A stretch of 53,789 nt of DNA, taken from positions 1 through 53,789 of the forward strand of contig CALVST010000010.1 in NCBI GenBank assembly GCA_944359365.1, read 5' to 3'. Shown here in pieces: positions 13,262 through 53,760 of the stretch. Position 1 is the stretch's first letter, and the number at the start of each line of letters is the position of its first letter. Position numbers and translations under genes: made by a program. The stretch is from an uncultured Clostridia bacterium. GTDB taxonomy: Bacteria > Bacillota > Clostridia > Christensenellales > Borkfalkiaceae. A model generated the notes under the pieces. It was not told the origin of the DNA. It saw only the letters and a program-made list of their open reading frames with translations, and searched no databases.

Positions 13262-13305
13262 ATTTATATGACCGCGGGAGCATTCCTGCGAATTGCGAAG
13301 AAATA

Positions 13306-13352
13306 CGCGGCACCGAGTTTTCGTGCCGCGCAAGCTTTCTTTCGCGCAAGCT
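13306..13352 (+). repeat. Hairpin and 10-bp direct repeat between clpP and clpX
   Basis: CGCGGCAC (13306-13313) pairs with GTGCCGCG (13323-13330). The 10-mer CGCGCAAGCT occurs at 13327-13336 and again at 13343-13352. No T run follows the hairpin, so it is not an obvious terminator; it could be a processing or stability element separating clpP and clpX levels. Confidence 0.55.
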
Positions 13353-13400
13353 GTTTGGCGCGCCGCGCAAAACGTGCGGGCGGGCGCGCGGGAGGTATTT

Positions 13401-14624
13401 ATGAAAGATAACGAACAATATTGTTCTTTTTGCGGTAAAAGCAAAGATCAGGTCAAGCGGCTCATCGCAGGCCCCAACGGACTGAACATCTGCGACGAGT
13501 GCGTGGAGATCTGCAACGAAGAGATCAAGTCGGTAACCGCCGTGCCGTCGGATAAGGTAGAGCTGAAAAAGCCGTCCGAAATAAAGGCGGAGCTCGACAA
13601 ATACATCGTAGGGCAGGATAAGGCGAAGAAGGTGCTTTCCGTCGCGGTGTATAACCACTATAAGCGCATCAACAGCGAAATAGCAAAAAACGACGACGAA
13701 GTAGAGATAGAAAAGAGCAACATCCTGCTTTTGGGACCTACCGGCTGCGGCAAAACGCTTTTGGCAAGGACGCTCGCGCGTATTCTGAACGTGCCCTTCG
13801 CCACGACGGACGCGACCACCCTCACGGAGGCGGGTTACGTCGGCGAAGATGTGGAAAATATCCTTCTCAAACTCATTCAGAATGCAGACTACGACATTGA
13901 AAAGGCAGAGCGCGGCATCATTTATATCGACGAGATCGATAAGATCGCGCGCAAGGGCGAGAACGTTTCCATCACCCGCGACGTTTCGGGCGAAGGCGTG
14001 CAGCAGGCGCTTTTGAAAATTATCGAGAGCACAGTTGCGAGCGTACCGCCGCAGGGCGGCAGGAAACACCCGCAGCAGGAGTGCATGCGCATCGATACGA
14101 CGAACATCCTCTTTATCTGCGGCGGCGCATTTGTGGGGCTGGATAAGATCGTGGCAAAGCGCAAGGACGACACTTCCCTCGGGTTCGGCGGCAAGGTGAG
14201 AAATCCCGGCGACGAAATGGATTACGAGGCGCTCGAAGACGTCAAACCGCAGGATCTCACAAAGTTCGGGCTGATTCCCGAATTTGTCGGGCGGGTGCCC
14301 ATCGTGGTAAGTCTGAAACCGTTGGACGAAACCGCGCTCGTCAAAATACTGACGGAGCCGAAAAACGCCATCATCAAGCAGTATCAAAAGCTCATCGGCA
14401 TGGACGGCGTAAAACTTTCCTTTGACGACGCGGCGGTCAGCGAGATCGCGAATACCGCCATCCGTTTGAAGACGGGCGCGAGGGGGCTTCGCACCATCAT
14501 AGAAAATCTGATGACCGACGTGATGTACGACATCCCGTCGAACGACGGCATCAGCGAAGTGCGCATCACGCGCGAATGCGTTCTCGGCACGGCAAAACCC
14601 GAAGTCATCAAAAAGAGCGCGTAA
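13401..14624 (+). CDS. clpX: ATP-dependent Clp protease ATP-binding subunit ClpX
   Basis: ClpX is the AAA+ unfoldase that feeds ClpP. The 407-residue protein has the N-terminal zinc-binding domain (Cys8, Cys11, Cys31, Cys34), Walker A GPTGCGKT, Walker [11 protein letters not shown], and the C-terminal sensor-2 segment [11 protein letters not shown]. The pore loop GYVGEDVE follows Walker A. The ATG at 13401 is preferred: it has GGAGG at 13391-13395 and starts immediately before the zinc domain; upstream in-frame sequence is not conserved in type. A hairpin terminator follows, and the sequence then changes abruptly to AT-rich. Confidence 0.97.
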
Positions 14625-14648
14625 AATCGATAAAAATCAGCTTGGTAT

Positions 14649-14693
14649 ATGCACCTTAAAAAGTTGGGTAGACTTTTTGGGGTGCATGTTTTT
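14649..14693 (+). terminator. Terminator of clpX
   Basis: ATGCACC and AAAAAGT (14649-14664) pair with ACTTTTT and GGTGCAT (14672-14687), followed by TTTTT at 14689-14693. Confidence 0.85.
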
Positions 14694-14760
14694 AATTATT
14701 GAATTAATAAATTTGCATAAGTTTGTCGTTCTCTTATATTTTATATAATATAATAAGTTA

Positions 14761-14789
14761 TTGAATTTGAAAAATAAAAGTGTTATAAT
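14761..14789 (+). promoter_or_regulatory. Promoter of the zinc-ribbon/nuclease gene
   Basis: TTGAAT (14761-14766), a 17-base spacer, TATAAT (14784-14789), 30 bases before the ATG. The gene is therefore an independent unit. Confidence 0.8.
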
Positions 14790-14819
14790 TAATATGAAAA
14801 TTCTATTCGGAGCATAAAT

Positions 14820-16754
14820 ATGCTAAAGCAAACAAAATTTGTTGCAGACTCTGATCTGATAAAAGAATGGGATTGGGAAGAAAACAACAAATTGAATTTA
14901 AATCCATATTTATTAACAATCGCAAGTCAAAAAAAAGCGCATTGGATATGTGAAAAGGGGCATGAGTGGACAACGACGATCAATCATAGGGGTATAGGCG
15001 GAACAAAATGTCCCTACTGTTCAAATAAAAAGGTATTAGTTGGTTTTAATGATTTTGAATCTCAGTTTCCTGAACTTATGAAAGAATGGGATTGGGAAGA
15101 AAATAACAAAATAAAAATATTTCCGCAAGAGATTTTTTGGGGAAGTTGTAAAAAAGTTTATTGGATTTGTTCTAATGGACACAAATGGTTAGCGTCAATT
15201 CGGCAAAGGACTGTTGTAGGGACAAATTGTCCCTACTGCTCTAATAAAAAGATATTATCGGGGTATAATGATTTAAAATCTCAAAGACCTGATTTGATGA
15301 TAGAATGGGATTATGAGAAAAACATTTTAGATCCTGAAAAGGTGGCAATACTTTCACCTAAAAAGGCATATTGGATTTGTTCAAAAGGGCATAAATATGA
15401 AAAATCAATTTATGATAGAGTGAAAGGAAAAGGTTGTCCTGTTTGTGTCCGTTCAAAAAGCACTTCGTTTCCCGAACAATGCTTTTATTATTATATAAAA
15501 AAAATATATCCTGATGCTATAAATAAATATAAGGACATATTTAACAATACTATGGAAATAGATATCTATATCCCCTCTATAAAGACGGGTATAGAATACG
15601 ACGGGCATTATTGGCATAATGAAGATTCATTGAAAAGAGAGGGAAAGAAGTACAATATTTGTAAGAAAAATGGAATAAAATTATATAGAATTAAGGAAGG
15701 AAAATTTGCGGAATCTGCTGATAACGCAGATAAAATATATTATATTCCAGAAGAATGTGATAATAAAATATTGAGTTTATATATTTATGAATTTATTAAA
15801 GTATTAACTTTTTTTAGCCATAAATTACCAAAAATTGATGTAGATAAAGATAAAAATGAAATTTTAGAATATATGACAATTAAATATGAAGATTCACTGA
15901 AAAATTTGTTTCCTAATATAGCAAAGGAGTGGCATCCAACAAAAAATGGTAAATTAACGCCTGATTTATTTGCGCCAAATTCTACTGAAAAAGTTTGGTG
16001 GAAATGTTCTAAATGTGGTAATGAGTGGTATGGTTCAATCGTAAATAGAAGTAATGGGCACGGTTGTAATGTATGCGCAACAGAAAAAAGGAAATTAACA
16101 AAAAAAGAAACATTGTTGTCTACTCGTCGGATTTTAGATAATAAAATATGTTTACTTGATTGGGATTATGACGCAAACGAGCATGGTCCAGAGTATTATA
16201 CATATGGTAGCGGTGAAATAGTCAATTGGAAATGCCACATTTGCGGATACAAATGGAAAACGGCTATATGTAATAGAACGAGAGATTATAAAAATGGATG
16301 TCCTTTATGCTCTGGGAAAACAATAGTTAGTGGTGTCAATGATTTATTTACCTTGTTACCCGACTTAATGAAAGAATGGGCTTGGGAAGAAAATAAAGAT
16401 ATTGATCCTAAAAAAATAGGAATCGGCAGTCATTTATTTGCGTATTGGAAATGCAAAAAATGTGGATATATATGGAAGGCAAAGATTTATAACAGAACTC
16501 ATGGCAAAGGGTGTCCTTGCTGTGCAAACAGAGTTGTTGTTTCTGGTATAAATGATTTAGGGACAACAAATCCAGAACTTGCTAAAGAATGGCATCCCAC
16601 ATTAAATGGTAGTTTAACTCCTTATCAGGTTACAAAGGGACAGAATATTAAAATATGGTGGAAATGTTCTAAATGTGGTAACGTATGGCAAGATACATTA
16701 AATCATAGAAGTTCATCAAAGAGGCAGTGTCCCAAATGTAAAGGAGTCGGATAA
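14820..16754 (+). CDS. Seven-zinc-ribbon protein with a central VSR/PD-(D/E)xK-like nuclease domain
   Basis: This 644-residue protein is very AT-rich compared with its neighbours and looks acquired. It has seven repeats of about 70 residues resembling the DUF4379 'probable zinc-ribbon' family. Each repeat runs: an acidic EW-D/H-W/P start, an aromatic W-x-C motif, a second ligand, then a C-P-x-C knuckle. Repeats 1-3 (about 12-215) use Cys and His (WIC-x2-GH), then CPYC or CPVC. Repeats 4-7 (about 366-644) use CxxC-G, then CxxC. Between them, about 216-340, is a domain with MEIDIYIP (Glu246, Asp248), GIEYDGHYWH (Glu259, Asp261, His263, His266) and GIKLYRIKEG. This matches the core of VSR-like and related endonucleases. 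A sequence-specific nuclease (homing, mobile or defence) is the best inference; no substrate is known. Confidence 0.75.
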   Translation: MLKQTKFVADSDLIKEWDWEENNKLNLNPYLLTIASQKKAHWICEKGHEWTTTINHRGIGGTKCPYCSNKKVLVGFNDFESQFPELMKEWDWEENNKIKIFPQEIFWGSCKKVYWICSNGHKWLASIRQRTVVGTNCPYCSNKKILSGYNDLKSQRPDLMIEWDYEKNILDPEKVAILSPKKAYWICSKGHKYEKSIYDRVKGKGCPVCVRSKSTSFPEQCFYYYIKKIYPDAINKYKDIFNNTMEIDIYIPSIKTGIEYDGHYWHNEDSLKREGKKYNICKKNGIKLYRIKEGKFAESADNADKIYYIPEECDNKILSLYIYEFIKVLTFFSHKLPKIDVDKDKNEILEYMTIKYEDSLKNLFPNIAKEWHPTKNGKLTPDLFAPNSTEKVWWKCSKCGNEWYGSIVNRSNGHGCNVCATEKRKLTKKETLLSTRRILDNKICLLDWDYDANEHGPEYYTYGSGEIVNWKCHICGYKWKTAICNRTRDYKNGCPLCSGKTIVSGVNDLFTLLPDLMKEWAWEENKDIDPKKIGIGSHLFAYWKCKKCGYIWKAKIYNRTHGKGCPCCANRVVVSGINDLGTTNPELAKEWHPTLNGSLTPYQVTKGQNIKIWWKCSKCGNVWQDTLNHRSSSKRQCPKCKGVG

Positions 16755-16773
16755 AAATATTGAAATGCCCATG

Positions 16774-16794
16774 TTGTAATGCTTGACTTTACAG
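16774..16794 (+). promoter_or_regulatory. Upstream operator-like palindrome at the sirtuin promoter
   Basis: TTGTAA (16774-16779), 9 bases, TTACAG (16789-16794). It covers the -35 box. It lies within the first copy of an 11-bp repeat, CATGTTGTAAT (16770-16780), whose second copy starts 42 bases later. Confidence 0.6.
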
Positions 16795-16811
16795 CAAAGA
16801 AGTGGTATACT
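16783..16811 (+). promoter_or_regulatory. Promoter of the sirtuin gene
   Basis: TTGACT (16783-16788), a 17-base spacer, TATACT (16806-16811), 39 bases before the ATG. Confidence 0.85.
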
Positions 16812-16815
16812 CATG

Positions 16816-16836
16816 TTGTAATTAATTTTGTTACAA
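16816..16836 (+). promoter_or_regulatory. Downstream operator-like palindrome at the sirtuin promoter
   Basis: TTGTAA (16816-16821), 9 bases, TTACAA (16831-16836). It starts 5 bases after the -10 box and so covers the transcription start. It has the same half-sites and spacing as the upstream palindrome, 42 bases (four helical turns) away. Confidence 0.65.
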
Positions 16837-16849
16837 TAGGTATGCGGTC

Positions 16850-17680
16850 ATGAAAAAAGACGTGGAAATGATGCGAAAATGGCTTGCAGAGGCGGAGGCG
16901 GTCGTCATCGGCGCGGGGGCGGGGCTTTCCTCGTCGGCGGGGTTTACCTATGCGGGGGAGCGGTTCGACAGGTACTTTTCGGATTTCGCGAAAAAATACG
17001 GCTTTCGCGATATGTATTCGGGCGGGTTTTACCCGTACCCTTCGTTGGAAGAGTTTTGGGCGTATTGGTCGAGGTATGTCTACATCAACCGATACGACCA
17101 ACCCGCGGGCAAGCCTTACGAAACCCTCCTGCGGCTCGTGCAGGGGAAAAATTATTTTGTTCTGACCACCAACGTAGACCACAGGTTTCAGGTCGCGGGG
17201 GTCGAGAAAGGGCGGCTGTTTTATACGCAGGGCGATTACGGGCTGTTCCAATGCAGTGTTCCCTGCCACAAAAAGACGTACGACAACGAAAAACAGGTGC
17301 GTGAGATGCTGGCGCGGCAGAAAGATATGAAGATCCCTTCCGAACTCATTCCCCGCTGCCCCGTCTGCGGAAAGCCGATGTCCATGAACCTTCGCGCGGA
17401 TAACTCTTTCGTAGAGGACGAGGGCTGGCATGCCGCCTGCGCGCGCTACGAGGCGTTCATTACCGAAAACGCGGGCAGGAAGGTGCTCTTTTTGGAACTC
17501 GGCGTGGGCATGAACACGCCCGGCATCATCAAATACCCGTTCTGGCAGATGACCTACCGCAACAAGAACGCGCGCTATGCGTGCGTCAACCTCGAAGGCG
17601 CATACGCGCCCGAGGAGATCAAGGGGCGCTCCGCCTGCATCGCGGGAGACATCGGCGAGGTCTTGGAAAAACTTTTGTAG
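16850..17680 (+). CDS. Sir2-family protein resembling class M sirtuins (SirTM)
   Basis: This 276-residue NAD-dependent protein has the Sir2 Rossmann fold: GAGAGLSSSAG (21-31) binds NAD, and TNVDHRFQ (107-114) carries the conserved Asn108. The usual catalytic His is replaced: the motif reads FYTQGDYG with Gln127, as described for SirTM enzymes, which act as protein ADP-ribosyltransferases in oxidative-stress operons. The zinc site uses Cys135, Cys139, Cys170 and Cys173. Known SirTM genes sit with a macrodomain hydrolase, a GcvH-like carrier and a lipoate ligase; none of these is here, so the target is unclear. Transcription is probably controlled by the two palindromes upstream. The ribosome site is weak (ATAGG). 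Confidence 0.85.
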   Translation: MKKDVEMMRKWLAEAEAVVIGAGAGLSSSAGFTYAGERFDRYFSDFAKKYGFRDMYSGGFYPYPSLEEFWAYWSRYVYINRYDQPAGKPYETLLRLVQGKNYFVLTTNVDHRFQVAGVEKGRLFYTQGDYGLFQCSVPCHKKTYDNEKQVREMLARQKDMKIPSELIPRCPVCGKPMSMNLRADNSFVEDEGWHAACARYEAFITENAGRKVLFLELGVGMNTPGIIKYPFWQMTYRNKNARYACVNLEGAYAPEEIKGRSACIAGDIGEVLEKLL

Positions 17681-30568: not shown

Positions 30569-30868
30569 TTAGGTCAGAAGTCTTATCAACGCCTCTTTTT
30601 TGTCTTCCGGAACGCCCCTGAGTTTTTCGATGATCTCTTTATCGTGCCGATAGGCGGGAATGGAATAGTAAAAAAATTCTTCCGTATCCGTATTGCAGGC
30701 ATCAAGTATTTCGAGCAGCGTTTCAAAAGTGGGCGCAAAATTCCTGTTCGTTTCGAGCATATGGATATAACCCGCATTCTTCCCTATGGCAAGCGACAGC
30801 TTGCGCGCGGAAAGATTCGCCCGATTGCGTATATAGCCGATGCGCTCTATCAGTTCTTCCAAAGTCAT
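30569..30868 (-). CDS. XRE-family transcriptional regulator (99 residues)
   Basis: A Cro/CI-type helix-turn-helix fills residues 1-~65: LIERIGYIRNRANLSARKLS, then AIGKNAGYIHMLE and PTFETLLEILDACNTDTEEFF. The last ~30 residues form a charged helix (HDKEIIEKLRGVPEDKKEALIRLLT) that probably dimerises. Similar proteins occur in phage-like and mobile regions as well as chromosomes. It diverges from the membrane zinc-ribbon gene; the palindrome over that gene's promoter is a likely binding site. The start is ATG, but no strong ribosome site is evident. Sequence is more AT-rich than the rpoBC genes. Confidence 0.85.
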   Translation of the reverse strand: MTLEELIERIGYIRNRANLSARKLSLAIGKNAGYIHMLETNRNFAPTFETLLEILDACNTDTEEFFYYSIPAYRHDKEIIEKLRGVPEDKKEALIRLLT

Positions 30869-30966
30869 AGTTTTATACTGCCGCCTTTTTTCTTTATTAT
30901 AAAGGAATCTTATTTATACATATGCATAAACAATAATCTAATTATGCTCAAAACAAAATATTTTAT

Positions 30967-31023
30967 CGTATTGTATATTATATTTGTTGACTATTATCGT
31001 ATTGTATGTTATAATACAATACG
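30967..31023. promoter_or_regulatory. Operator array CGTATTGTAT (direct and inverted) over a promoter
   Basis: The 10-mer CGTATTGTAT occurs at 30967-30976 and 30998-31007, 31 bases apart (three turns). Its complement ATACAATACG lies at 31014-31023, forming a palindrome with a 6-base centre that covers the -10 box. The first copy sits just upstream of the -35 box. Confidence 0.7.
30987..31015 (+). promoter_or_regulatory. Promoter of the membrane zinc-ribbon gene
   Basis: TTGACT (30987-30992), a 17-base spacer, TATAAT (31010-31015), embedded in the operator array. Confidence 0.85.
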
Positions 31024-31088
31024 CAAGCGGGCGGAAGTTGTTTCCGACGCAGCCGATTGCAAAAGAAAAACAAAAAGGAGAAGGGTAA

Positions 31089-31412
31089 ATGGCTGCAATT
31101 ATTATTTTTGCGATTCTTATAGTGATCGTAGTGCTGGCACTTGTAATTGCGGAGGCAAACAGAAAAAAGCGCGCGCGCTGCAAGGAATGCAACACGAAGT
31201 ACGATTACGATAACGACGTTTCGTGGTCAGTGGTGCAGGAGATCGAAGAACAGAATTGTATAAAGTCGGTGGTGGATATCACCTGCGTCTGTCACAACTG
31301 CGGCGCCGAAAAAAAGTACACAAGAACTTTTAAAACTGCCGAAAGGAATACAAATACGGGAGTGGTCACGCGCCGCAATATATATGACCTTTTGAAAAAA
31401 GAATTTAAATAA
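31089..31412 (+). CDS. Small membrane-anchored zinc-ribbon protein
   Basis: This 107-residue protein begins with one strong membrane span (about 3-21, AAIIIFAILIVIVVLALVIA) followed by a positive stretch (NRKKRAR), so the rest is probably cytoplasmic. A four-cysteine ribbon follows: CKEC (31-34) and, after about 30 residues, CVCHNC near 66-71. The C-terminus is charged (RNIYDLLKKEF). I do not recognise the family. AAGGAG precedes the ATG. It has its own regulated promoter and terminator and diverges from the XRE gene, suggesting a two-gene stress or defence module. Confidence 0.75.
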   Translation: MAAIIIFAILIVIVVLALVIAEANRKKRARCKECNTKYDYDNDVSWSVVQEIEEQNCIKSVVDITCVCHNCGAEKKYTRTFKTAERNTNTGVVTRRNIYDLLKKEFK

Positions 31413-49129: not shown

Positions 49130-49339
49130 ATGGCTCTCAGCTACAACAAGTTATGGAAATTGCTAATCGACAAGGGGATGACAAAGACGGAAATGCGCCT
49201 CAAAGCCGACATCTCTACGACCACGCTCGCTAAACTCGGCAAGAATGAAACGGTGTCAATGGAGGTTCTCCTCAGGATTTGCAAAGTTCTCGATTGCAAC
49301 GTCGGCGACATTATGGATGTCATAAATGAGGAGGAGTGA
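49130..49339 (+). CDS. Small HTH (XRE-type) regulator of the island
   Basis: This 69-residue protein is little more than a helix-turn-helix domain: YNKLWKLLIDKGMTKTEMRL, then DISTTTLAKLGKNETVSMEV and LLRICKVLDCNVGDIMDV. Stand-alone regulators of this kind commonly head restriction-modification and toxin operons and control their expression, often by binding their own promoter. The next gene begins three bases after its stop, and the GGAGGAG that ends this gene serves as that gene's ribosome site, so they are coupled. No operator palindrome is obvious to me. Confidence 0.88.
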   Translation: MALSYNKLWKLLIDKGMTKTEMRLKADISTTTLAKLGKNETVSMEVLLRICKVLDCNVGDIMDVINEEE

Positions 49340-49341
49340 TT

Positions 49342-50412
49342 ATGGGAACCAAAGGTTATATTTATATACTTACAAATCCGTCGTTTAAGGAATATGTCAA
49401 GATTGGTTATGCGGATAACGTTGAAAATCGTTTAAAACAGCTCAATAACAGCGAATGTATCCCTTTTGCTTTTAGAGTCTATGCAACTTATGAAGTAGAA
49501 GAAAGATTGACGGATAAAAAATTACATGCTCTTATTGACCAGCTTAATCCAAATCTGCGTTCTATTGAAAACGTAGGCGGTAAATTGCGTGTGCGCGAGT
49601 TTTATGCAATGTCTCCTGAGCAGGCATATTCAATTTTAGAAACGATTGCTGTTCTCGGTGGTCGTAAGGATCGTTTGAAACTTTGGGAGCCTTCTGCGCA
49701 GGAGAGAAAAGATGAAGATCTTGCGCAAGAGATTGAAGAAGAACATATCGAGCGGCTTTCTCCTTTCACATTCTCCAAGTGTAATATTCCCGTGGGCGCT
49801 GTAATTACATACTTTAATCGTGGTAAAGCAAATTCCGGTGTTGAGTGTACTGTAATAGACGATAAAACAGTTGAATATCAAGGAAAATCTTACTCTCTTT
49901 CTGCGTTAGCAACTGAGCTTTCCGGAAAACATGGTGTTGCTGGACCGAGATATTTTAAGTATAACGGTGAGTGGTTGAATACGATAAGAGCCAAAGCTGA
50001 AGGCAGAAAAGACCCGACAAGAGTAGAAGATGTTTGGGTTATTCCTTGTAACCCTAAACTTTATGATATCGTTGGGGCTTTCAATAAATTTGACACGATT
50101 GATTGGAGTCAAACAAATAACACCTCGGTGGGGGATACAGTTTATATTTATGTCGGCGGAGAGTATAAAGCCATCATGTATAAATGTGAAGTTGTGGCCA
50201 CGGAGTTATACGGAGATTATAATGATGATTTAGAATTTTATAAGGGCTTGCCTGAGAAAACACATTCACGGTATATGCGCCTTAGGCTGATTGAAAAGTA
50301 TGATAAAGATAAATTTCCGCTTGCTGACTTGCGCGAACACGGGCTTACTAACGTGCAGGGCAGGAGTAAGGTCACGCCACAGCTTTTAAATTATTTAAAA
50401 GGGAATTGTTAA
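49342..50412 (+). CDS. GIY-YIG (T5orf172)-DUF4357-EVE fusion protein
   Basis: This 356-residue protein combines three domains. Residues ~4-105 are a T5orf172-type GIY-YIG nuclease: GYIYILTNPSFKEYVKIGYA, Arg30, and VREFYAM near residue 84. Residues ~148-218 match DUF4357 (GAVITYFNRGKANSGV, GKSYSLSALA, GPRYFKYNG). Residues ~230-356 resemble an EVE/PUA-like domain (VWVIPCNPKLYDIVGAF, IDWSQTNN, VGDTVYIYVGGEYKAIMYKCEV). EVE domains in restriction proteins read modified bases. A modification-dependent nuclease acting beside the type I system is a reasonable inference. The start is ATG 49342 with GGAGGAG six bases upstream; a GTG at 49336 is also possible. Sequence is AT-rich. Confidence 0.82.
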   Translation: MGTKGYIYILTNPSFKEYVKIGYADNVENRLKQLNNSECIPFAFRVYATYEVEERLTDKKLHALIDQLNPNLRSIENVGGKLRVREFYAMSPEQAYSILETIAVLGGRKDRLKLWEPSAQERKDEDLAQEIEEEHIERLSPFTFSKCNIPVGAVITYFNRGKANSGVECTVIDDKTVEYQGKSYSLSALATELSGKHGVAGPRYFKYNGEWLNTIRAKAEGRKDPTRVEDVWVIPCNPKLYDIVGAFNKFDTIDWSQTNNTSVGDTVYIYVGGEYKAIMYKCEVVATELYGDYNDDLEFYKGLPEKTHSRYMRLRLIEKYDKDKFPLADLREHGLTNVQGRSKVTPQLLNYLKGNC

Positions 50413-50427
50413 AAAATTTTTAAGTAA

Positions 50428-51207
50428 ATGAAGAGAAAAGTTCCGAAATCATTACAGGCAATTATTATTACTATGTTATTGGGGATGTTTATTCCTAAAA
50501 TATTTGAAATAACCGGCGTTGCTATCTTTGATAAAATAATAATTAAAGGCTTATTGAGCCTCGCATTCTCTGCGGCAACAATATGTGTAGGAGTGTTTTA
50601 TTCTGCCCGAATTTTAAAAGGGAGGACCTCTGGAGGGAAAGCGAGAATATCACTCTACATATTGTTTGCAATTATATTACTGAGTGTAACATCAACAGTT
50701 GTTTCATTTATACAATCTATAAGCGATATAATTCTTTATATTTTATCTGGATTGGCTGCGCTACTTAGCTTAGTTCTAATTATTTGGCTGGGTATAAAAG
50801 TAATATCCGCAAAGAAACAGTTTAAAACATCGCAGGAAAAATCCGTAATTCAAAGCCAAAACAATGAAGAGAAAATTCCTGTTGAGACGGAAAAATTTAA
50901 TAAGCCTAAACCTTGCTATGCGCCTAAAAGCATACCCAAGTATGTGCAAGATAACAGTATAAAGCAAGCTGAGTTGGGCGTAGAATTAAAAGCCCTATAT
51001 GAATTGTGGAGCGAAAGGGGTGTAAGTAAAAAGTGTCTTACGGCTACAAATGATGAGAATCCTGATTTAAAATGGGTAAAAATTTATAAACCTCCTTACG
51101 CAAATGGTAAGTTTTATGGATATGTGCTAATGAATAACGCGCACAATACAGTAAACGGCGAAATATATTTCGCTGATAGACGAATATGGAGAGTTGCTGA
51201 AAATTAA
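50428..51207 (+). CDS. Four-span membrane protein of unknown function in the restriction operon
   Basis: I do not recognise this 259-residue protein. The first ~125 residues hold four hydrophobic spans (about 10-28, 36-58, 73-97, 99-125). A polar linker rich in Lys, Gln and Glu (130-175) leads to a C-terminal soluble domain (about 180-259) with LKALYELWSERGVSKKCL, KWVKIYKPPYANGKFYGYVLMNN and EIYFADRRIWRV. There is no signal peptide or catalytic motif I can name. It lies between the GIY-YIG-EVE gene and hsdM, in the same orientation. Its ribosome site is weak. A membrane partner or effector of a defence module is possible but unproven. Confidence 0.7.
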   Translation: MKRKVPKSLQAIIITMLLGMFIPKIFEITGVAIFDKIIIKGLLSLAFSAATICVGVFYSARILKGRTSGGKARISLYILFAIILLSVTSTVVSFIQSISDIILYILSGLAALLSLVLIIWLGIKVISAKKQFKTSQEKSVIQSQNNEEKIPVETEKFNKPKPCYAPKSIPKYVQDNSIKQAELGVELKALYELWSERGVSKKCLTATNDENPDLKWVKIYKPPYANGKFYGYVLMNNAHNTVNGEIYFADRRIWRVAEN

Positions 51208-51223
51208 AAAAGGAACACAAAAT

Positions 51224-52855
51224 ATGCCTAAGAAAGAAGTAAAATCAAAAGAACAATTGTTGGAAACCGTCCTTTGGAATTGCCGCGTGGCGCTCAGGAC
51301 TATTGGTAGCCTTGAAAAGAAGAGGGATGCCATTATTTCACTGTGCTTTTTAAACTTTGCAAGCGTAAAATTTGAGCGCCGCCGCAAAGAAATTATAGAG
51401 CAGTATGGCGATGTGCCTGTATTTTTAGAGAAAGTTTCATTTTATAATGCAGAGAACGTCTACTATCTGGACGAGCATTGCCGCTGGAACTATATCGTTA
51501 AGAATGCAAGCGCGGACGATATTGCTGTTAAAATAGATAAGGCGTTGGCTGATATCGAGGCGAAGAACCCACCGCTGAAAGGTGCGCTTCCTCAACAACT
51601 TTTTGTTTCATTGAATGCCGATAAGTCCGCAATGAAGTCGCTCATCGATGAAGTCAATAAAATCAATGAGGAACGCTTTAAAGAAGAAGATTTAATCGGC
51701 AGGGTATATGAATATTTCCTTCAAAATTATGCTGCCTCCGGCACAAAGGAGGACGGTGAATTTTACACTCCTGCCTGCGTTGTAGAGCTCATCACAGAAC
51801 TTATTGAACCGTTCGATGGCGTCGTCTATGACCCTTGTTGCGGTTCCGGTGGCATGTTTGTGCAGAGTATGCGTTTTGTGGACGAGCACAAGGGCAACCG
51901 CAAAAAAGTTTCTGTGGTCGGGCAGGAATCCAATCCCGACACTTGGCGACTTGCAAAAATGAACCTGTCTATTCGCGGTATTTCCTGCGATTTGGGCGAA
52001 AAGAACGCCTCAACGTTCACCGAAGATTTACATAAGGATAGAAAGGTTCGCTACATTATGGCGAATCCGCCCTTCAATCTTAAAAAATGGCGCGGCGAAG
52101 ATGAGCTTATAGGCGACCCCCGTTTTAAGGGGTGGGGAGCTATGCCTCCCGTTTCAAACGCTAACTATGCGTGGATATTGCATATGCTCTCTAAAATGGA
52201 CGAAAGCAACGGCATTGCCGGGTTTCTCCTTGCAAACGGCGCATTGAACGCAGGTGCTGGCGGTGACGATGAGGGTAGCGAAAATTCGGAATATATTATC
52301 CGTAAACAGCTTTTGGAGAGGGATAAGGTGGAGGCAATTATAGTTTTGCCCCGCGATATGTTCTATACAACGGATATTTCCGTAACGCTGTGGATTTTGA
52401 ATAATAACAAAAAGGCTCACGAGCTGAACGGCAGAATGTTGCGTGACAGAACTAATGAAGTGCTGTTTGTCGATTTGCGCCGCTGGGACGATAACACCGA
52501 AGAATATGTGCTTGATAAAAATAAAAAGAAGAAAAAGACGGTGCTCTCCCGCAAGCAGATAGAAAAAATTCGTGACCTTTATTTTTCTTGGCAGAGCGCG
52601 GACAGAAACCTGTACAAAGACGTTCCCGAATACTGCAAGGCGGTTACGCTTGAAGGCGAAAACGGTATCAGAGCAAATAACTATACCCTTACGCCCAGCA
52701 AGTATATAGAGTTTATCGACCACGACCTCGATATCGATTTCCCCAAGGAAATGGCGCGTATTCAAAAGGAAATGAAGGAAGTTATCGAGCAGGAAAAGCA
52801 GTCGCAACAGCTTTTAATTAAGGCATTTGAAGGTATCGGCTATGGCATTGAGTAA
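51224..52855 (+). CDS. hsdM: Type I restriction-modification DNA methyltransferase subunit HsdM
   Basis: This 543-residue subunit methylates adenine in the type I recognition site when bound to HsdS. The N-terminal helical HsdM domain covers about 10-155. The catalytic domain has FYTP at the start of the fold, SAM motif I DPCCGSGGMFVQS, and motif IV IMANPPFNLKKW. The C-terminal helix (FPKEMARIQKEMKEVI) contacts HsdS. It looks complete. I use the ATG at 51224, with AAAGGA upstream; a TTG at 51194 is an alternative that overlaps the preceding gene. hsdS overlaps its end by 14 bases. Confidence 0.93.
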   Translation: MPKKEVKSKEQLLETVLWNCRVALRTIGSLEKKRDAIISLCFLNFASVKFERRRKEIIEQYGDVPVFLEKVSFYNAENVYYLDEHCRWNYIVKNASADDIAVKIDKALADIEAKNPPLKGALPQQLFVSLNADKSAMKSLIDEVNKINEERFKEEDLIGRVYEYFLQNYAASGTKEDGEFYTPACVVELITELIEPFDGVVYDPCCGSGGMFVQSMRFVDEHKGNRKKVSVVGQESNPDTWRLAKMNLSIRGISCDLGEKNASTFTEDLHKDRKVRYIMANPPFNLKKWRGEDELIGDPRFKGWGAMPPVSNANYAWILHMLSKMDESNGIAGFLLANGALNAGAGGDDEGSENSEYIIRKQLLERDKVEAIIVLPRDMFYTTDISVTLWILNNNKKAHELNGRMLRDRTNEVLFVDLRRWDDNTEEYVLDKNKKKKKTVLSRKQIEKIRDLYFSWQSADRNLYKDVPEYCKAVTLEGENGIRANNYTLTPSKYIEFIDHDLDIDFPKEMARIQKEMKEVIEQEKQSQQLLIKAFEGIGYGIE

Positions 52856-53345
52856 AGTGCGCTTGGGGGATTACTTAAAATTATATAGGGAATGCTGTGG
52901 TATTGCGGATTTAACTTGTTGGGATGTCTCTGGCGTCAATAAGAACAAGGAATTTTTTGAGCCGGCAAAACAAGTTGGTGAGGATACATCAAATTACAAA
53001 ATCGTCCCCCCTGATTATTTTGCTTGTAACTTAATGCATATTGGGAGGGATGTCGTGCTTCCTATTGCGTTGAATCGCACAAGTAAAAATAAATATGTGA
53101 GCCCGGCATTGCCAGACTGTACCTCTGCTCAAATTTCCGAATTGAGAGGTGCTATTATGGGTTTTTACAGAGCAGCTAATATCGCAGAATTTCTTTCCGG
53201 CGATATGGATGCATTAGAAGAATTACAAATTGGCCTCCAAAAGATTATAGACGATAATGCTATAAAAGATAAAGTCGTATTGCAGCAAATTAAATGGTTT
53301 GCTAAGAATGTGTCGGATATAATTTACAGATTAAAACAGGGATAA
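52842..53345 (+). pseudogene. hsdS: Truncated or chimeric type I specificity subunit HsdS
   Basis: The first ~85 residues are a clear HsdS target-recognition domain start: VRLGDYLKLYRECCG, DVSGVNKNKEF, GEDTSNYKIVPPDYFACNLMHIGRD and KYVSPA. A normal HsdS continues there with a long domain plus a second copy, about 400 residues in all. Here the frame instead enters an unrelated helical stretch (ELRGAIMGFYRAANIAEFL, ALEELQIGLQKII) and stops at 167 residues. An internal deletion or recombination near 53112 is the simplest cause. It may give no DNA specificity, or a novel half subunit. It starts inside the end of hsdM. Confidence 0.7.
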
Positions 53346-53349
53346 GACT

Positions 53350-53760
53350 ATGGACTATCATTTTACAAAAGGAAATTTTACAGAATCTGAACTTGAAAAG
53401 GCGATTATTGAACTTTTCAAACAACAAGGCTATACCTATTTGCATGGCGATGAAATTCATCGTCCGTTTAAAGATGTCCTTTTGTATGATGACCTTAAAG
53501 CCTTTTTGTTGTCACAATATCCTGATTTAACTCAGTCTGAATTGAGTAAAATTATTAGCCGTTTGGACAATCTCCCCTCTGTTCCTCTTTATGAGTGTAA
53601 CCGCGATACATATCGGCTTGTTTCGGAAGGTTTTGATTTTGTGCGTGAAGACCCTTCAAAAATAGGACTTTATATCAATTTTATTGATTTTGATAATGTC
53701 GATAACAACTCAATACAGGATAATCAGCAACCGAAGTGCGATAATCGGCACTTAGTATAG
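53350..53760 (+). pseudogene. hsdR: Type I restriction subunit HsdR, N-terminal fragment, interrupted
   Basis: Residues 1-~120 match the N-terminus of HsdR: FTKGNFTESELEKAIIELF, YTYLHGDEIHR, DVLLYDDLKAFLLSQYPDLT, SVPLYECNRDTYRLVSEGFDF and LYINFIDFDNVDNNS. In intact HsdR this is followed by a VNQ-type strand and then the catalytic RRPD...ELK nuclease residues and a helicase. Here the match fades after DNNS and the frame stops at TAG 53758-53760, 29 bases before the window end. The break coincides with a possible group II intron start at 53736. Whether the rest of hsdR lies beyond is not visible. Confidence 0.7.

What the first reader, a model, noticed from the sequence alone, without database searches (positions are those of the whole stretch)
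14820..16754. Seven zinc ribbons wrapped around a nuclease-like core, in an acquired island
Seen: three repeats with a Cys-His-Cys-Cys pattern, a domain with E-x-D...IEYDGHYWH, then four repeats with a Cys-Cys-Cys-Cys pattern, all in one 644-residue protein. Known: DUF4379-type ribbons and VSR-like endonucleases exist separately and in phage-related proteins. Inference: the ribbons form an extended DNA- or RNA-reading array positioning a single cut, with two ribbon subtypes flanking the catalytic core. The gene has its own promoter, sits alone between two core genes, and differs sharply in base composition. It could be a free-standing homing-type nuclease or a single-gene defence system.
Basis: partly seen in the sequence, partly recalled or inferred. 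Interest (0 to 1): 0.75.

Follow-up and report, generated by a model that had tools for sequence, protein, structure and literature searches.

The report
Mobile zinc-ribbon array nuclease gene
A gut bacterium carries a foreign, AT-rich gene for a probable DNA-cutting enzyme set inside a string of seven zinc-binding modules; it belongs to a large, little-studied family of probably selfish 'homing' genes that settle just downstream of other genes and appear to rearrange their modules.

Summary
Gene 14820-16754 encodes 644 aa: seven DUF4379 treble-clef ribbons (E 5.6e-114), three before and four after a VSR-like PD-(D/E)xK core. A profile of the core region matches 3r3p, a mobile-intron nuclease structure (E 1.8e-7), and the acidic residues are conserved. 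The gene has 31.9% GC, the rest of the window 53.3%. One relative has the empty site behind clpX; another keeps only the insert's two ends.

The kind is known in outline: phages carry 'Hef-like' or EDxHD-outgroup homing endonucleases, usually with ribbons before the nuclease. In 19 of 23 chromosomal members examined the nuclease sits inside the array, at a slot that differs between homologues. Two related elements have seven ribbons each, but the nuclease after ribbon 3 in one and ribbon 6 in the other. Their shared DNA starts directly behind two different tRNA genes, and their noncoding ends (90-91%) are better conserved than their ribbons (68-77%).

Best reading: a free-standing homing-type mobile gene whose array is remodelled. 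DNA cutting, target and homing are inferred. Nothing specific pointed to defence.

The parts
14820..16754 (+). Gene for the 644-aa ribbon-nuclease protein
   Evidence: ORF; 7 x DUF4379; only PF14311 gene in the held genome
14856..15029 (+). Ribbon 1 (C-H-C-C)
   Evidence: PF14311 E 6.5e-15; zinc ligands
15075..15248 (+). Ribbon 2 (C-H-C-C)
   Evidence: PF14311 E 1.9e-15
15297..15452 (+). Ribbon 3 (C-H-C-C)
   Evidence: PF14311 E 1.0e-17
15450..15824 (+). Nuclease core, residues 211-335; E219, E246, D248, E259, D261, H266, K277
   Evidence: profile position; residue conservation; PF18741 below cut-off; profile match to PDB 3r3p E 1.8e-7; AF2 model of residues 154-424, mean pLDDT 85.9
15918..16082 (+). 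Ribbon 4 (C-C-C-C)
   Evidence: PF14311 E 3.8e-21
16158..16319 (+). Ribbon 5 (C-C-C-C)
   Evidence: PF14311 E 7.6e-14
16365..16532 (+). Ribbon 6 (C-C-C-C)
   Evidence: PF14311 E 2.1e-17
16578..16745 (+). Ribbon 7 (C-C-C-C); a remnant of it is kept in relative G026
   Evidence: PF14311 E 1.5e-20; remnant G026:C18:8445-8603, 79% identical over residues 590-642
14626..16771 (+). Approximate extent of the insert, absent from relative G011 (41 other bases there)
   Evidence: blastn flanks end at 14625 and resume at 16772; sequences compared
14647..14689 (+). Terminator-like hairpin at the left end of the insert, shared with G026; stands where G011 has a different hairpin
   Evidence: found in 2 of 40 genus genomes, G000 and G026, at up to 3 mismatches. 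One such site is what shuffles give on average
14761..14789 (+). Promoter-like TTGAAT-17-TATAAT before the gene
   Evidence: number of such sites in the region not above chance
13293..14624 (+). clpX, upstream neighbour (longest ORF; true start probably further in)
   Evidence: Pfam zf-C4_ClpX and AAA_2
16850..17680 (+). Downstream neighbour, sirtuin-like by eye only; no Pfam hit at E 0.001
   Evidence: relatives in 16 of 40 genus genomes

Best explanation
It is a free-standing, homing-type mobile gene. Its product is an extended array of treble-clef ribbons, each reading a short piece of DNA, with one VSR/EDxHD-like PD-(D/E)xK nuclease set between two ribbons. It would bind a long target, cut it, and be copied into the broken DNA by the host's repair. 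Shown here: the domains, the conserved residues, the predicted fold, the insertion against an empty site, its decay in a sister species, scattered single-gene insertions of relatives, and a nuclease slot that differs within the array. Inferred: DNA rather than RNA as substrate, double-strand cutting, the target, copying by repair, and selfishness as the reason for persistence. The scattered locations need movement to new sites, not only homing into one allele, and the data do not explain that step.
For: Seven ribbons and a nuclease core. The profile of a ribbon-nuclease-ribbon alignment of 33 matches 3r3p, 'Mobile intron protein', E 1.8e-7, over the core. The AF2 model has a helix-strand-strand-strand-helix-strand core. 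Phage relatives include proteins annotated 'Hef-like homing endonuclease'; in AR9 one lies within the coordinates of a CDS joined from three pieces, next to an ORF noted 'group I intron VSR'. PHROGs hits include HNH endonuclease and homing endonuclease families. PADLOC's only hit at E up to 0.01 for relative L008 and for a Hef-like phage protein is its HEase (homing endonuclease) model. Empty site in G011 and ends-only remnant in G026. Homologues in 5 other genus genomes are AT-rich genes (34-40% GC) at, judged from their neighbours, five other places. Flanks of G032's copy join without it in 2 of the 4 relatives compared, G020 and G061.
Against: No target site was identified, and among genus copies only the G026 remnant shares the window's site, so allele-to-allele homing is not seen. 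No intron around the gene (no Rfam match at E up to 1). PDB matches of DUF4379 are mitoribosomal proteins, so the fold also serves RNA-protein complexes. Foldseek did not list 3r3p among the 50 rows shown of 1202 for the ribbon-nuclease-ribbon model, so the link to 3r3p rests on sequence profile. PF18741 scores are below Pfam's cut-off. NCBIfam gave only weak matches, none near its cut-off.
Confidence: 0.6

Rival explanations
1. A single-gene anti-phage or anti-plasmid defence nuclease whose array recognises invading DNA and whose ribbons are shuffled to follow changing targets.
For: Sporadic presence (6 of 40 genus genomes over the family cut-off), foreign composition and ribbons in different orders would also fit defence. 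A type I restriction island lies in the same window at 49.3-53.8 kb, but 32 kb away.
Against: PADLOC gives one weak partial hit for the window protein (E 0.014) and only its homing-endonuclease model for L008. Read by eye, many neighbours of the homologues look like housekeeping genes or are tRNAs; they were not scanned with defence models. Phage relatives are annotated homing endonucleases.
Confidence: 0.15
2. A transposon-like or integrase-dependent passenger: the gene is cargo with cis-acting ends that another enzyme moves, and the nuclease is accessory or helps target the insertion.
For: L008 and L009 share noncoding ends (90% over 267 nt, 91% over 125 nt) while ribbons are at 68-77%; the right end recurs next to what looks like the end of another family member in L240. 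Both shared stretches start behind tRNA genes. L139's gene lies beside an integrase-like ORF (by eye) and a tRNA cluster; a plasmid homologue lies beside an annotated tyrosine recombinase.
Against: No other gene in the window insert. A pattern of two right-end repeats occurs in only 2 of 391 class genomes, and neither end repeat occurs in the window insert. The hairpin at the left end also stands behind a tRNA-Gln gene in G152 without the rest, so it may be an ordinary tRNA terminator.
Confidence: 0.15
3. An RNA-binding nuclease acting on tRNA or other transcripts near which it inserts.
For: PDB matches of DUF4379 are trypanosomatid mitoribosome proteins; 4 of 22 chromosomal loci, the window included, lie within 500 bp downstream of a tRNA on the same strand.
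Against: The core is closest to DNA endonucleases (3r3p; MTES_1575 in 16 of 17 members at E up to 0.1). The window has no tRNA, and of the five genus copies four have none in the stretch scanned and L052's is over 4 kb off.
Confidence: 0.06

Closest known systems
Phage 'Hef-like' / EDxHD-outgroup homing endonucleases (3-5 CapR/DUF4379-like domains plus C-terminal EDxHD/Vsr domain; passages and part 2 of section 6 of PMC12350094 seen; Hef of phage U5 from a passage of PMC2988022)
   Same: Ribbon array plus the same kind of nuclease; 155 phage records matched, the 40 listed at 22-40% identity; core residues shared with members on viral contigs
   Different: In 78 of 80 viral ORFs with both parts the nuclease follows all detected ribbons (near-identical contigs not removed); here ribbons lie on both sides, as in 19 of 23 chromosomal members examined. 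No intron here
I-Bth0305I, EDxHD homing endonuclease (PDB 3r3p is titled 'Mobile intron protein'; that it is I-Bth0305I is recalled)
   Same: Nuclease core by profile, E 1.8e-7 over 59 profile positions
   Different: Passages of PMC3943268 describe EDxHD enzymes with NUMOD-type DNA-binding regions, I-Bth0305I dimerising on a target of nearly 60 bp; this protein has DUF4379 ribbons and is free-standing in a chromosome. Its oligomeric state is unknown
T4-type free-standing homing endonucleases (Seg, Mob; passages of PMC2988022)
   Same: Nuclease genes without an intron, in intergenic regions between conserved genes
   Different: GIY-YIG or HNH cores; cleavage sites of several are known, here none is
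DUF4379 proteins of trypanosomatid mitoribosomes (mS66, mt-SAF33)
   Same: Ribbon sequence and fold (E 2.9e-12 and 1.1e-11)
   Different: Ribosomal or assembly proteins; the best-scoring matches cover the ribbon part, not the nuclease core
TAL effectors (recalled; seen only in a search listing)
   Same: Analogy only: tandem repeats with a near-invariant framework and a few highly variable columns
   Different: Unrelated fold; no code demonstrated here

Membership tests
DUF4379 (PF14311) | Profile match over the curated cut-off | tested here: met
   372.8 bits against 24.5, seven stretches. The same family rings in 2 of 14 control genomes (Bacillus subtilis, Corynebacterium glutamicum), so it is not rare in itself
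VSR / EDxHD / PD-(D/E)xK nuclease | Profile similarity of the core | tested here: met
   3r3p E 1.8e-7 by alignment profile; MTES_1575 in 16 of 17 members at E up to 0.1, window segment E 0.00064, below Pfam's cut-off
VSR / EDxHD / PD-(D/E)xK nuclease | Acidic catalytic residues conserved | tested here: met
   E219, E246, D248, E259, H266, K277 in 17 of 17, D261 in 14 of 17 (17 of the 23 chromosomal members examined). In 33, mostly viral: E246, D248, E259, H266, K277 invariant, E219 at 90% or more, D261 not
VSR / EDxHD / PD-(D/E)xK nuclease | Fold of the core by structure search | tested here: inconclusive
   Predicted order of elements fits, but the PDB search was led by ribbon matches and Bax1 endonuclease (6p4o_B, E 6.6e-4, TMq 0.28); 3r3p not among the 50 rows shown
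VSR / EDxHD / PD-(D/E)xK nuclease | Metal-dependent DNA cleavage | not testable with these tools
   needs biochemistry
Free-standing homing endonuclease gene | Single nuclease gene in an intergenic insertion, with an empty allele elsewhere | tested here: met
   G011 empty, G026 remnant
Free-standing homing endonuclease gene | Cuts the allele that lacks it and is copied in | not testable with these tools
   no target found; needs a genetic assay
Free-standing homing endonuclease gene | Recurrent presence at one allelic site in related genomes | tested here: not met
   the five other genus copies lie, judged from their neighbours, at five other places; only the G026 remnant shares the window's site
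Group I / II intron HEG | Located in a self-splicing intron | tested here: not met
   no Rfam match at 14000-17500, E up to 1, none at gathering scores in the whole window
Known anti-phage defence system | PADLOC match or defence neighbours | tested here: not met
   only a weak partial DruE hit, E 0.014; the downstream neighbour has no PADLOC hit and the upstream one is clpX

The most novel reading that the evidence does not exclude
Chromosomal ribbon-nucleases are a modular DNA-reading system in which each roughly 70-aa ribbon reads a short DNA segment through a few highly variable residues on one short helix. Ribbons are lost, gained and re-ordered around a nuclease slot that moves, so that target and cut position change, while conserved ends let whole coding cores be exchanged between copies at the 3' ends of tRNAs and other genes. 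That would be a natural, shuffling, programmable nuclease array.
Probability: 0.22. Interest if true: 0.85.

Novelty: new variant of a known kind. Interest (0 to 1): 0.55.

Why it matters
[quoted passage not shown] This case shows a chromosomal branch with a different build: arrays on both sides of the nuclease, a nuclease slot that differs between relatives, ribbons with a fixed framework and a few variable columns, and insertion right behind core genes or tRNAs. If the ribbons read DNA in a modular way, the family would be a natural source of compact programmable DNA-binding modules and would explain a class of AT-rich orphan genes in Clostridia genomes. In the searched open-licence library 3 records mention DUF4379, two of them versions of one paper.

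Tried and rejected
Intron hypothesis: no Rfam match around the gene or in the window. Defence hypothesis: no PADLOC support. IS21-like ends for the L008/L009 elements (a recalled resemblance): a pattern of two right-end repeats was found in 2 of 391 class genomes, at G124's own element (two matches) and at a contig start in G162, and the left and right repeats point the same way, so I dropped it. A mini-IS origin of the window hairpin (also recalled) was dropped: in 40 genus genomes it occurs once in G000 and once in G026. The left-end hairpin of L008/L009 as an element-specific end is weakened: G152 has it behind a tRNA-Gln gene without the rest. Diversifying selection on ribbons: columns 11, 16 and 41 have second-position differences of 0.61, 0.70 and 0.71 against 0.585 at four-fold sites (28 of 31 ribbons of five proteins), but four-fold sites are near saturation, so this is a hint, not a test. 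Recent ribbon exchange: in the matrices made (L008 against four others, within L008, within the window) no two different ribbons exceed 0.81 DNA identity. Plasmid homologues: no common neighbour in the three looked at. The class search used a ribbon-nuclease-ribbon query, which may favour split arrays; the viral scan used an alignment of the same build. Ribbon thresholds differed: domain E 1e-3 for 19 chromosomal proteins, 1e-2 for 4 more and for viral ORFs. A further relative in G151 (76% DNA identity over about 430 bases) was not fetched and is in no count. Full-length model: ribbons moderate, arrangement undefined (pLDDT 71.3, pTM 0.32, 5 sequences).

Full report
What is in the sequence. 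The ORF at 14820-16754 encodes 644 residues. Pfam finds seven DUF4379 stretches (E 5.6e-114) and one weak REase_MTES_1575 match at residues 245-302 (E 0.0026, below cut-off). The seven ribbons are the only PF14311 hits in the held genome, 89.74% complete. The gene has 31.9% GC, the rest of the window 53.3%. The organism is Candidatus Borkfalkia-like: the G026 contig with the remnant has the length of the record DWXC01000038.1, 'Candidatus Borkfalkia stercoripullorum', and the 4 kb taken from it are found letter for letter in that record.

Nuclease core. In an alignment of 17 chromosomal members (of 23 examined) E219, E246, D248, E259, H266 and K277 are invariant; D261 is kept in 14 of 17, N in 3. 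In a second alignment of the window, L008, L009 and 30 viral pieces, E246, D248, E259, H266 and K277 are invariant and E219 is kept in at least 90%; D261 is not. The profile of that alignment matches PDB 3r3p, 'Mobile intron protein', E 1.8e-7, which I recall to be the catalytic domain of I-Bth0305I. AlphaFold2 models residues 154-424 at mean pLDDT 85.9, with the order helix, strand, strand, strand, helix, strand for the core. The PDB fold search returned mitoribosomal DUF4379 proteins and Bax1 nuclease first, and 3r3p is not among the 50 rows shown.

Insertion. In G011 the region behind clpX has 41 bases between the flanks that surround the insert in the window (14625 and 16772); by eye they hold a hairpin followed by a T-rich stretch. 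In G026 the same site keeps the left end, with the window's hairpin, and 53 codons from the end of the gene (79% identical); the middle is gone. So the insertion was most likely present in the common ancestor of G000 and G026, and G011 either never had it or lost it. The hairpin occurs in 2 of 40 genus genomes, G000 and G026.

Relatives in the genus. 6 of 40 genomes have PF14311 over the cut-off, 8 of 40 at E 0.001. The five others over the cut-off carry their gene at five other places, judged from the neighbours, each with 34-40% GC between richer neighbours: for instance behind an isocitrate dehydrogenase-like gene in G011, behind an FMN-reductase-like gene in G026, and directly behind a LysR-like gene in G032 (names by eye from the translations). 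For G032 both flanks join without the gene in G020 and G061, 2 of 4 relatives compared. For the G011 site 3 of 4 relatives compared show both flanks with other DNA of about 0.4-1.4 kb between them; for the G026:C28 site the downstream flank was not found in any of 4.

Relatives in the class. 13 of 391 class genomes, own included, match the ribbon-nuclease-ribbon query at E up to 1e-20. Of 23 chromosomal proteins with the core that I examined, 19 have ribbons on both sides, 1 only before it and 3 only after it (some run into contig ends or look truncated). Of 115 viral ORFs with the core, 78 have ribbons only before it, 2 on both sides, and 35 none that my profile finds (near-identical contigs not removed, some ORFs cut by contig ends). 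The split array thus looks typical of the chromosomal members, with the caveats under Tried and rejected.

A nuclease slot that differs. The number of ribbons before and after the core is 3+4 in the window, L008, L053 and L140, 6+1 in L009, 4+3 in L132, 1+5 in L056, 2+3 in L052, 4+1 in L054 and L055, and 7+1 and 3+7 in the two genes of L138. L008 and L009 are related along the element, with a block of about 1.1 kb shifted by 624 bases, three ribbons. Where a ribbon precedes the core in the alignment it does so directly, and the core stands where the ribbon linker would be.

Ribbon columns. Five related proteins have 31 ribbons; in the 28 with equal spacing W5, N10, P15, S22, W27, W28, C30, H34, E35, W36, R43, C49, P50 and C52 never vary, while within the first 56 columns 16, 41, 45, 39, 17 and 19 vary most (linker columns 57 and 70 also vary). 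In the full-length model each of the seven window ribbons has a short helix (54-58, 127-133, 197-201, 407-411, 483-488, 556-560, 627-631); counted by hand, columns 41 and 42 lie in it, 39 just before it and 45 at or beyond its end. Whether they contact DNA is unknown.

Ends of two related elements. L008 and L009, from two Clostridia MAGs with different neighbours, share DNA that begins 1-2 bases behind tRNA-Ser(GCT) and tRNA-Leu(TAG). Their left noncoding part is 90% identical over 267 nt (local dips to 70%), the first 54 coding nt 96%, the right noncoding part 91% over 125 nt, the nuclease 79%, and ribbons 68-77% depending on which are paired. In the nuclease 15 of 28 four-fold sites differ, in the first 18 codons 0 of 6. 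So the ends are younger or more constrained than the core. The right end, with three 21-base repeats, recurs in G162 behind a reading-frame end that resembles the C-terminus of L137 by eye. By eye, in all three a terminator-like hairpin follows the right end. In 4 of 22 chromosomal loci, the window included (L008, L009, L137, L138), a tRNA lies within 500 bp upstream on the same strand. The window insert has neither end repeat. By eye, L134, L135 and L140 share a promoter-like stretch before the gene in otherwise different surroundings, which again suggests that gene and promoter move as a unit.

What it is like. Phage relatives include proteins annotated 'Hef-like homing endonuclease'; in AR9 the gene lies within the coordinates of a three-piece RNA polymerase gene beside an ORF noted 'group I intron VSR'. 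PMC12350094 (passages and part 2 of section 6 seen) describes group II intron HEGs with three to five CapR/DUF4379-like domains followed by an EDxHD/Vsr domain. The window protein belongs with these by domains, but differs in build and setting. I therefore call it a new variant of a known kind.

Mechanism, with certainty. Nuclease of this class: about 0.85. Mobile single-gene insertion: about 0.85 from the sites. Homing-type spread as the reason for its existence: 0.6. Modular DNA reading with remodelling: 0.22. No biochemical statement is shown here. Literature searches were made in a library of open-licence papers only: DUF4379 gave 3 records, one of them noting a large subtree of 219 DUF4379 genes of foreign origin in Mucoromycota fungi (passage of PMC11291939); the phrase 'zinc-ribbon domain-containing protein' with 'homing endonuclease' gave 0.

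Noticed in passing
window 49336-53760: A second AT-rich stretch (GC 0.36-0.47) at the end of the window: a T5orf172 gene matching PADLOC PDC-S57 (E 6e-96), then type I restriction genes: an HsdM-like methylase, a weak specificity-subunit match and an HsdR N-terminal piece.
   Followed up: partly
L008 5711-7985, L009 5713-7979, L240 1-172: Elements with shared ends, two of them behind tRNA genes: three GGGTTCA repeats at the left (20-base pitch, L008) and three AGGGGGTGCA repeats at the right (21-base pitch); a pattern of two right-end repeats is in 2 of 391 class genomes.
   Followed up: partly
L237 and L238: The same left-end design (hairpin, then GGGTTCA repeats) downstream of tRNAs in G152 (at a contig end) and G116; no ribbon ORF seen by eye in the stretches held.
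   Followed up: partly
L085 2586-3583 and L086 2583-3965: The stretch behind an icd-like gene is variable: G000 and G026 hold about 1.0 and 1.4 kb of different DNA where G011 has its ribbon gene.
   Followed up: no
window 30644-31213: A GC dip (0.41) around a 189-aa ORF with no Pfam match at E 0.001.
   Followed up: no
L138 4244-9337: Two ribbon-nuclease genes in tandem (962 and 725 aa, ten and eight ribbons), the nearer one 460 bp downstream of a tRNA-Leu gene.
   Followed up: no
L139 5515-8695: A ribbon-nuclease gene without detectable ribbons before the core, with an integrase-like ORF (by eye) and a cluster of five tRNA genes upstream.
   Followed up: no
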